The notes below the pieces were generated by a model. It was not told where the DNA came from, did not search any database, and saw only the letters and a list, made by a program, of their open reading frames with translations. Shown one piece after another: positions 19,601 through 23,144 of a DNA stretch of 64,000 nt (its first letter is position 1; every line of letters starts with the position of its first letter). The translations under genes and the position numbers were made by a program. Source of the stretch: Siniperca chuatsi (lineage: Eukaryota; Chordata; Actinopteri; Centrarchiformes; Sinipercidae); the NCBI RefSeq assembly GCF_020085105.1, contig NC_058053.1:16463888-16527887 (forward strand), in the 5' to 3' direction.

Positions 19601-22600
19601 TCCTCTGAGGTGACAGAGAGCTCCGAGCTGGCCACTGCTCAGAGACACTCAGAGAACCACCTGAGGATGCATGTAGCCATGACAGAAGGATACCGCGCTT
19701 TGAATGAGGAAAAGCCAGAGGTCACTGCACCTAGTGATGGTGGCGTGGGAGCTATGCAGTACAATCCCCAGGAGCATCAGGAGGAGGAGGCGAAATCATC
19801 TGCAGTCGCCTCCTCACAGATTTTTCACTCGGATGGCGGCGAGATGGAGCCAGAGACAATGGAAATAAAATCAGTCAGTGAATACTTCACTAAGATGCAC
19901 ATGGGCTCAGTAATGAGCAGGCAGAGAGGAAAGCAGAGAGAGGCAGAGAGCAGAATCCATGGAGATACCTGTGAATCCTCTAATAGATCTCACATGACTT
20001 CTCAAGACTCTTCTAAAGATGAGCCCCCTCATCTTGTTGGGAAGTATAACGCTTTCACTGTGAGAGATTCCTATTACATGAATCAGCTTGATCTGGGGCG
20101 AACTCACTTTAAAGACAGGCATCAAAAATGGCAGCAGAGAGCGCCTGGAAACAAAATGGCAGAAAATCTCTCTCCAGAATGTGTGAATGACTCACAGGCT
20201 TCCCACGCAGACAGGTTGAGAGTAAAGGGAGAGAAACAGGACTCAGATGAAAGAAGCCAACAGTTCAATGCCCAGCTCCGCTCCCCATCCAAAGGGCCCA
20301 TCCCTGCAGAGAGAGATGCCACTTCACAGGATAATGAGCAACAGCAAATTAAGATTCCGCCATCAGAGCAAGAAGTCACACGGTTATATGACTACCACAT
20401 GAGCAAGCGCATGTCATCGATACAGAGTGAAGGCGTTCATTCTCTCCAAAGCTCACAATGTTCCTCTATAGACGCCGGTTGTAGCACAGGCAGCAGCAGC
20501 TGTGTCACTCCCATGGATTCTCCCCTTTGTGCCACAGACAATATGCATGTACTGTCAGAGTCCTCGCTTAAGGGGCTGAGTTATGTAACTGCTGAGGAGA
20601 AAGCTTATGGGCCCCCAGGTCAGGGGAGGGTTGGCCATCCCATGGATCCCACCCTGCTGAGGAAGATCCATGCCGCTACCAGTGCTGAGCCTGGGTTCGG
20701 GATTACACGGGACGGCAGTCACAGAATGCCCAAGATAAAAGAAACCACAGGTAAAACTAAACAGGAGGGTGCTCTTTCTTATCTATGTCTGTGTAAATGT
20801 CCAGTCTCATTACAGGAAAATAAGGGCAGGAATATATTTCAAATGGTCAGGTCACACAAATTACAAAAGCATACATGTTGTCATCCACCTCGTGGTATCT
20901 AGCCATGCAGATAGTTCTGGTTATATCTGCTATCTAACCGAGATTTTGGCTTCCCCCTAATACAATGTAGGTGACTAGAATTTCATTTGTGGTGCTCACA
21001 GCAAAGAATAACAGCACTCATGCTCCAGATAATCTGCAGACCTCCTGTAAACGGTTTCCTTTGGAAACACTTTCTATTGAAAAACAAGACTAAGCGTCTA
21101 TAGCCATGCTAGCAGCACTGTGAGGCTGTGCTTAGGCACAGCAGTGGTTTGACCTAAATGCTAATGCCATTATGCTAACATGCTGATGTTAAGCAGGTAT
21201 AATGTTTATCATGTTCACTTTAGTTTAGCATGTTAGCATGCTAAACACAGTACAGCTGAGGGTGATGGTAATGTCAATTTTTGCCTGCTGGTAAAGAAAA
21301 AGTAAGGGGATCACCAAAGTAATTAGGATTCATCATCTGGGGACAATTAATGTCTGTACAAAATGTTAAGGCACTCCATCCAGTAGCTGAGATTTACAGG
21401 GACACAATTTATGTGATTTTTTCCCCCTGGTGATCCATTTTCTAAGTCTGATCTAAATTGTTTTCTTACCTGTGTTTATGATTTAAGAATAGGTTTTGCC
21501 AGTTTTGAGTTCCTTTTGTTGTTGTAATACTCATTTTGGCCACAAGAGGCTGAAGTGCACCCCTACTCCATGTTAAATAGGACCAAAAGCATTCATGTTT
21601 TCTTCCAGGTAAAGCGCTGATTAAATACATTTCTAGCCAAAAGAAATACATAACAGTAATGTTACATAACTTGCTAACACACAATATATGTACCTTGTGT
21701 TTAGAGTGCATGGAGAAATTAAAACTCGCCCGTACAATCTTTAAGGAATTAAGATATTTTTAACATGTAGGCCTATGGAAATTCAGGAAAAGATGCATTT
21801 CATCATTTCAGATTTCTATATGGAACAGTTTATTACAGATGAATATGTGCTGTCAGGGAGATGCTTAACAGTTCTCTTTGTTTTCCTACTACCCCTAGTG
21901 TAGCTTGCACACAGCTGAAGAAGGTTGGGGAAGAGTCATCTTTAGCTCTCTATAATGAGACCAGTACCACCACCACAACCATGTCACCATCATCATTAAG
22001 AAGTAGCACAGAGCCCAGCGGGCTAACACAGGCCAGCCCCGAGCCCAACCCACATGCCCTGGCTTTCCCCTCAAGTGGATCTTCATGTGACCCTACAACA
22101 GGCAGCCTCAGGAAGCCACGCAGGGTTCAGATGCTCAGGAGGAGCTGGAGCACCATAATGCCAGGTCACAGGGGCTTAGAAGCACTGTTAGAGAAGACCA
22201 AAGCCACACTTACATGGAAGAGTGGTGGTCAGAATTTCCAGTCTCAAGATCCCCCAAAAGTACAGAGTATATCCTCTACCAAAAGATTGCCCAAGAGCTT
22301 GTCCCAGGGTTCAGTCGCCTCTAATTCATCTGGTAGACGGCTGCTAAGAGGAGCATCCCTGTTGCTGCCAGACTCAACAGCAACAAGGCTGGATGCAGGT
22401 ACGTGGAGGTGTCAGGGGCCGTTCAGTCATTGCTTCCTGCGGAGAAAGACAAACACAGATGGTGATATTGAAGACAGAGAGATGCCCTCACATGATCTGT
22501 TCTCTGTCAGCTCGGTTTCTTTTAATCGAGAGGAAAACACGTTCTTGAAAGCTGACTATAAAGCTGAGCGGGGTAACATGGCCACAGCTATGAATGACAT

Positions 22601-23144: not shown

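What the first reader, a model, noticed from the sequence alone, without database searches (positions are those of the whole stretch)
20741..23144. Overlapping splice acceptors switch frmpd4 between an ETTV PDZ ligand and a 413-residue tail
Seen: the exon ending at 20750 leaves one base (G). The last intron ends CCCTAG|TGTAG|C. The first AG gives ETTV and a stop; the second AG, which is that stop codon, gives Ala and then an open frame of 412 more codons. Established, from memory: mammalian FRMPD4/Preso ends in a class I PDZ ligand that binds PSD-95, and I recall human ending KETTV. Inference: one 5-nt choice would remove the PSD-95 ligand and add a helical domain (for example [19 protein letters not shown]) that resembles the C-termini of FRMPD1 and FRMPD3. 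A stop codon doubling as a splice acceptor is an unusual switch.
Basis: partly seen in the sequence, partly recalled or inferred. Interest (0 to 1): 0.78.

Follow-up and report, generated by a model that had tools for sequence, protein, structure and literature searches.

The report
FRMPD4 tail switch: PDZ ligand or talin-like domain
In a fish brain-scaffold gene, two splice sites five letters apart can choose between a short protein ending in a PSD-95-type docking tag and a long one ending in a talin-like helical domain, and predicted proteins from sharks to mammals show the same two endings.

The parts
19542..20750 (+). penultimate coding exon of frmpd4, ends ..KIKETT plus one base (G)
   Evidence: sequence and translation; KIKETT in 333 of 351 proteins fetched, KIRETT in 8, KMKETT in 5
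20751..21903 (+). last intron (1153 nt to acceptor 2, 1148 to acceptor 1); closed in this fish (24-25 stops per frame) but homologous to an open, in-frame 221-267 codon segment in sharks and several early-branching fishes
21852..21908 (+). remnant of the ancestral coding segment ([19 protein letters not shown]), overlapping branch point, pyrimidine tract and both acceptors; its last codons lie in the long-form exon
   Evidence: tblastn with six open-intron proteins, best hit of each E 8.9e-10 to 1.8e-7 against 1300 nt; these hits run on up to about 17 residues past acceptor 2, so part of the score is exon
21865..21869 (+). TTAAC, branch-point-like (A at 21868)
   Evidence: the only yUnAy match between 21841 and 21900
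21872..21896 (+). polypyrimidine tract, 22 of 25 pyrimidines
21897..21898 (+). acceptor 1 (AG): gives KETTV and stop, a class I PDZ ligand
   Evidence: the same ending in 49 of 119 proteins
21901..21903 (+). stop codon TAG of the short form; its AG (21902-21903) is acceptor 2
21904..23144 (+). long-form last exon: Ala + 412 codons + stop
   Evidence: 100% identical to P0001 (1677 aa) over the region compared
21906..22574 (+). linker of 223 residues, predicted disordered, with conserved short motifs (GSLR, LRRS, SQGSV, WRCxGPFSxCFL)
   Evidence: AlphaFold2 mean pLDDT 51; alignment; 29-38% identity in local alignments to eight proteins: two cartilaginous fishes, gar, bichir, turtle, chicken, caecilian, bat
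22575..23141 (+). C-terminal 189 residues; about residues 27-189 form a talin-rod-like five-helix bundle
23268..23273 (+). AATAAA, candidate polyadenylation signal for both forms

Best explanation
frmpd4 has a tandem 3' splice site in its last intron, 5 nt apart. Use of the first AG ends the protein KETTV, a class I PDZ ligand of the kind by which Preso/FRMPD4 is reported to bind PSD-95. Use of the second AG, which takes the stop codon away, gives a 413-residue tail: a disordered linker and a talin-R11-like five-helix bundle. Both endings go back to the jawed-vertebrate ancestor. There the intron was itself probably an in-frame coding segment that could also be kept (an exitron); it closed in perch-like fishes and amniotes while its splice signals stayed. 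Shown: sequence, conserved products, predicted fold. Inferred: that the same 5-nt choice makes both forms in other species, that it is regulated, and that the scaffold thereby trades PSD-95 docking for a helical-bundle contact (perhaps LD-motif or cytoskeletal partners, as in talin and FAK).
For: Exact anatomy. Long form: KETT-Ala in 203 of 232 proteins listed by two tail searches, from cartilaginous fishes (P0118, P0120, P0123-P0127) to birds. Short form: 49 of 119 proteins end in ETTV. Both in Sebastes umbrosus, Acipenser ruthenus, Cetorhinus maximus, Dermochelys coriacea and Channa argus, in each on a contig of the same length, and in Latimeria chalumnae, whose long form has no contig listed. 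P0307, 1256 aa from a 5784-base contig, 93% identical to the Siniperca protein, ends KETTV; that so short a contig is spliced cDNA is my inference. Tail sequence in mammals: bat model 49% over 368 aa to chicken, rodent model 61% over 204 aa. Bundle confident and talin-like. Open intron conserved: bony fishes 42-51% in the two named pairs, shark or chimaera to bony fish 24-29% in five pairs.
Against: No junction reads and no DNA from other vertebrates were available, so the 5-nt spacing elsewhere is inferred from protein. Most database proteins are gene predictions. 70 of the 119 short-search proteins do not end ETTV: 56 read on from KETTG, 12 stop at the exon end, 2 read into the tail. Of 232 tail-search proteins 29 lack KETT-Ala. 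Both mammalian tail models are faulty: the bat one breaks off in the bundle, the rodent one skips the start of the tail and ends in unrelated residues. A 5-nt tandem acceptor can be noise. The printed Talin_IBS2B scores (12-19 bits) are below the cut-off of 27, and a profile search of PDB sequences did not find talin.
Confidence: 0.78

Rival explanations
1. Splicing noise: one acceptor (in fish, perhaps the second) makes nearly all message, and the ETTV form is a low-level by-product that gene predictors record.
For: Tandem acceptors are often used loosely (recalled); a study of tandem sites describes 3-nt, in-frame extensions as the main kind at acceptors (PMC2423196, passages).
Against: ETTV is found from shark to mammal although its V and stop are spelled by bases that the long form removes as intron; it is the only PDZ-ligand-like end seen, and the mammalian protein is described with a C-terminal PDZ-binding motif (PMC10965980, passages).
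Confidence: 0.17
2. Both endings are real, but in mammals the tail is a relic: only the ETTV form is made there.
For: The passages read on the mammalian protein speak only of a C-terminal PDZ-binding motif; the two mammals with tail sequence in hand are faulty gene models (P0297, P0303).
Against: 61% identity of rodent to chicken over 204 tail residues and 49% of bat to chicken over 368, which a long-dead stretch would hardly keep.
Confidence: 0.25
3. The open intron of sharks and early fishes is an artefact of gene models that read through an intron.
For: P0117 comes from a contig that also reads into the preceding intron, so it is unspliced; P0110, P0116 and P0119 could be read-through models; no transcript was seen.
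Against: 221-267 codons without a stop in 11 proteins (three of them isoforms of one species), bichir relative to bonefish 51% and to arowana 42% identical, and basking-shark models of all three forms.
Confidence: 0.15

Closest known systems
Preso/FRMPD4, ETTV form (PSD-95-interacting scaffold)
   Same: same gene, same PDZ and FERM domains, class I C-terminal PDZ ligand
   Different: no paper found by the searches made describes the talin-like tail or the acceptor that makes it
Talin rod domain R11 / IBS2
   Different: 17% identity, one bundle only, behind PDZ and FERM with a long disordered linker, optional by splicing
FAK/Pyk2 FAT domain
   Different: Z far below talin; four helices and a kinase in FAK (recalled)
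Tandem (NAGNAG-like) acceptors
   Same: two AGs a few bases apart behind one branch point
   Different: 5 nt and out of frame, second AG inside the first product's stop codon, 413 residues at stake
Exitrons (PMC4484396, passages with parts of the abstract)
   Same: in sharks and early fishes the intron is coding when kept
   Different: here two acceptors make three possible endings, and the segment is an ordinary closed intron in the window
GluN1 C2/C2' and PMCA a/b splicing (recalled, from no call)
   Same: a splice choice that gives or removes a C-terminal PDZ ligand
   Different: those use distant sites or cassettes, not AGs 5 nt apart

Membership tests
Alternative tandem 3' splice site | two AGs within a few bases behind one branch point and pyrimidine tract | tested here: met
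Alternative tandem 3' splice site | both acceptors used in transcripts | tested here: inconclusive
   both products predicted in six species and a cDNA-sized contig for the short form (P0307); no junction reads
Class I PDZ ligand | [S/T]-X-hydrophobic at the free C-terminus | tested here: met
   T-T-V then stop; 49 of 119 proteins
Class I PDZ ligand | binding to PSD-95 | not testable with these tools
   reported for mammalian Preso (PMC10965980, passages)
Talin rod-like five-helix bundle | fold: five helices in talin R11 order | tested here: met
Talin rod-like five-helix bundle | sequence match above the Pfam cut-off | tested here: not met
   Talin_IBS2B matched by 10 of 10 members, best E 4.6e-5, but only the window's score is printed: 18.9 bits against 27; 14.2, 14.9 and 12.2 bits in three whole proteins. 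Filed as a talin-like fold, not as a talin member
FRMPD1/FRMPD3 C-terminal region | homology to the tail | not tested
   no FRMPD1/FRMPD3 among the proteins listed; own-genome protein searches did not complete
Exitron | intron inside coding sequence, open and in frame when kept | tested here: not met
   not met in the window: 24-25 stops per frame, 1153 nt not a multiple of three. Met, by protein, in 11 homologues

The most novel reading that the evidence does not exclude
A jawed-vertebrate-old (over 400 million years, recalled) three-way choice at one intron: keep it (coding segment), splice at AG1 (PDZ ligand for PSD-95) or splice at AG2 (talin-R11-like bundle). The end of the coding segment and the splicing signals are the same bases, and mammalian FRMPD4, an intellectual-disability and hearing gene, makes an undescribed talin-like form that moves the scaffold from postsynaptic-density docking to an adhesion or cytoskeleton contact.
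Probability: 0.4. Interest if true: 0.82.

Novelty: new variant of a known kind. Interest (0 to 1): 0.64.

Why it matters
FRMPD4 is a synaptic scaffold linked to X-linked intellectual disability, epilepsy and hearing loss (PMC13060437: title, start of the abstract in a listing, passages). If mammals make the tail form, its variants may lie outside the usual coding model, and work on 'the' C-terminus has seen one of two proteins. A choice between a PDZ ligand and a talin-like domain would be a compact, testable way to move a scaffold between postsynaptic density and adhesion. The ancestral coding intron would be a case of coding sequence turning into an intron while its splice signals persist.

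Tried and rejected
Chance: YAGTNTAG is as common as expected (18 against 18.5), so the motif itself is not evidence; the case rests on conservation. Tail as junk: rejected by 46-54% identity of the bundle to gar, bichir, two cartilaginous fishes, turtle, chicken and caecilian and by the predicted fold. Homology of the tail in PDB by sequence: none by single sequence; profile, 6 matches, best E 0.087, no talin. Pfam families matched by one to three members were taken as chance, except TLN1-like_RS (3 members) and Talin_R4 (1), which fit talin. Paramormyrops kingsleyae has both forms but on contigs of different length, so it is not counted among the species with both; Acipenser X1 (P0107) is left out for the same reason. 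FRMPD1/FRMPD3 comparison: wanted, not possible. The human protein is recalled to end KETTV; not used as evidence. Rfam, promoter and dN/dS analyses were not run. Schellens 2022 (Whirlin-Frmpd4) and Lee 2008 (Preso) were not read: known through citing passages and references; the look-up of Lee 2008 failed.

Full report
WHAT IS THERE. The window carries the 3' part of frmpd4 on the + strand: residues 700-1141 of the spliced query are 100% identical to a RefSeq 'FERM and PDZ domain-containing protein 4 isoform X2' of Siniperca chuatsi, 1677 aa. Pfam finds PDZ, RA_2, FERM_M and FERM_C_FAK1 in it above cut-off. The exon 19542-20750 ends ..KIKETT plus one G. The intron ends TTCTCTTTGTTTTCCTACTACCCCTAG|TGTAG|CTTGC. 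AG1 (21897-21898) yields KETTV and TAG; AG2 (21902-21903) is the AG of that stop and yields KETTA plus 412 codons to the stop at 23142-23144. One branch-point-like TTAAC lies 30 nt before AG1 and 22 of the 25 bases 21872-21896 are pyrimidines. As no intron is known to follow, neither stop should bring on NMD (standard rule, recalled).

IS IT MORE THAN CHANCE. The motif is not: 18 YAGTNTAG in the window, 18.5 expected. The products are. Two tail searches (219 and 467 proteins at E up to 1e-3, the best 120 of each listed) gave 232 distinct proteins. The residue after KETT is Ala in 203, Gly in 19 (reading into the intron), Val in 3, Asp in 1, Glu in 1, and 5 have no such motif. The long form spans sharks and chimaera, sturgeon, gar, bichir, teleosts, coelacanth, caecilians, turtles, crocodile, lizards and birds. 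A third search, limited by length to shorter proteins, found 183 (120 listed, 119 of them new). Of the 119, 49 end exactly in ETTV, 56 read on from KETTG, 12 stop at the exon end and 2 read into the tail. The 49 include cartilaginous fishes (P0243, P0248, P0261, P0320), bowfin, sturgeon, coelacanth, lungfish, frogs, a salamander, a snake, turtles, a bird, several mammals (for example P0272, P0289, P0309, P0318) and perch-like fishes (P0313, P0333, P0334, P0335, P0344). The 56 and 12 look like partial models, retained introns and unspliced contigs.

BOTH FORMS IN ONE SPECIES. By the names given by the sources, six species have a long and an ETTV form: Sebastes umbrosus (X1-X4; X6), Acipenser ruthenus (X2, X3, X5; X6), Cetorhinus maximus (X6, X7; X8), Dermochelys coriacea (X2; X5), Channa argus (P0039; P0333), in each on a contig of the same length, and Latimeria chalumnae (P0134, no contig listed; X2). 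Paramormyrops has both on contigs of different length, probably two gene copies. These are predictions. The best RNA-like evidence is P0307: 1256 aa in a contig of 5784 bases, ending KETTV, 93.4% identical to the Siniperca protein over 1250 aa. P0265 (1314 aa, 6015 bases) and P0291 (1236 aa, 6156 bases) also end ETTV. That these contigs are cDNA is my inference from their length; no such contig was seen for the long form.

THE INTRON WAS PROBABLY CODING. Among the 232 proteins, 19 read KETTG. Fourteen of these, picked by a following (P/H)S-V-(A/V)-C before the tail, were compared; the other five are short odd models in four fishes and a sturgeon. In 11 of the 14 the segment is 221-267 residues: a chimaera and several sharks (three rows are isoforms of one species), Erpetoichthys P0119, bonefish P0110, arowana P0116 and one unnamed contig P0117. 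A sturgeon model has 100 residues and two perch-like models 25-26. P0119 against bonefish is 51%, against arowana 42%; shark or chimaera against bony fishes 24-29%. The segment ends typically HVV(R/K)EMLNDSLCFS(T/A)TPSVAC. The window's intron, though closed (24-25 stops in each frame, 1153 nt), still ends [19 protein letters not shown] (21852-21908; best tblastn E 8.9e-10, part of it from exon). That peptide is spelled by the branch point, pyrimidine tract and both acceptors, so splice signals and a former protein segment are the same bases; which of the two kept them cannot be told here. S-V-A (S-V-V in P0119) is what AGT-GTA-G would give, which agrees, without DNA, with a 5-nt spacing in sharks and early fishes; as that ending was used to pick the rows, it is consistency, not a test. 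The short-search proteins that run on into the intron stop within 81 residues in 55 of 56 (the other, P0303, rejoins the tail).

HOW IT MOST LIKELY WORKS. Shown: anatomy, the two conserved products, the predicted fold. Inferred: after branching at 21868 the first AG competes with the second 5 nt on; the outcome decides between a PDZ ligand and a helical bundle on the same PDZ-FERM scaffold. The mammalian protein is said to enhance NMDAR-PSD-95 binding by its C-terminal PDZ-binding motif (PMC10965980, passages), and a zebrafish Frmpd4-Whirlin contact by PDZ-binding motif is cited in PMC13060437 (passages). Talin rod and FAT bundles bind LD motifs and other partners (PDB titles); that the FRMPD4 bundle does so is a guess.

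WHAT IS KNOWN. The long form is in public annotation, but none of the searches made here brought up a paper on it. Of the papers listed I read passages of three that name FRMPD4 (PMC13060437, PMC10965980, PMC10830384); the other listed papers were seen as titles and abstract starts only, and most subscription papers are outside that library. Tandem acceptors, exitrons and splice-controlled PDZ ligands are each known; the combination, with a talin-like alternative, is a new variant.

LIMITS. No RNA reads, no other vertebrate DNA, and the search of the window's own genome answered once only (one DNA query, finding the window itself). FRMPD1/FRMPD3 resemblance is therefore untested.

Noticed in passing
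window 25621-28782 and 30947-34129, + strand: Two long open frames with leucine-rich repeats and a TIR domain follow frmpd4, as Toll-like receptor genes (the TLR7/TLR8 neighbourhood, recalled).
   Followed up: partly
proteins P0105, P0325, P0334, P0351 and P0111: UniRef labels several FRMPD4 proteins 'Toll-like receptor 7', and P0111 (Larimichthys) joins FRMPD4 tail sequence to leucine-rich repeats: neighbouring genes fused or misnamed in databases.
   Followed up: partly
window 39875-43440, - strand: Several overlapping frames; two scanned give reverse transcriptase, RNase H, integrase zinc-binding and chromodomain matches: a Ty3/gypsy-type retroelement in pieces (type recalled).
   Followed up: partly
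window 18751/18752: The exon 17774-18751 uses a donor reading ACAG|GTTCTC, which lacks the usual purine at +3.
   Followed up: no
window 21906-22574 (linker): A WRCxGPFSxCFL-type motif with several invariant positions in 25 aligned sequences, cartilaginous fishes to birds, inside an otherwise disordered linker; function unknown.
   Followed up: no
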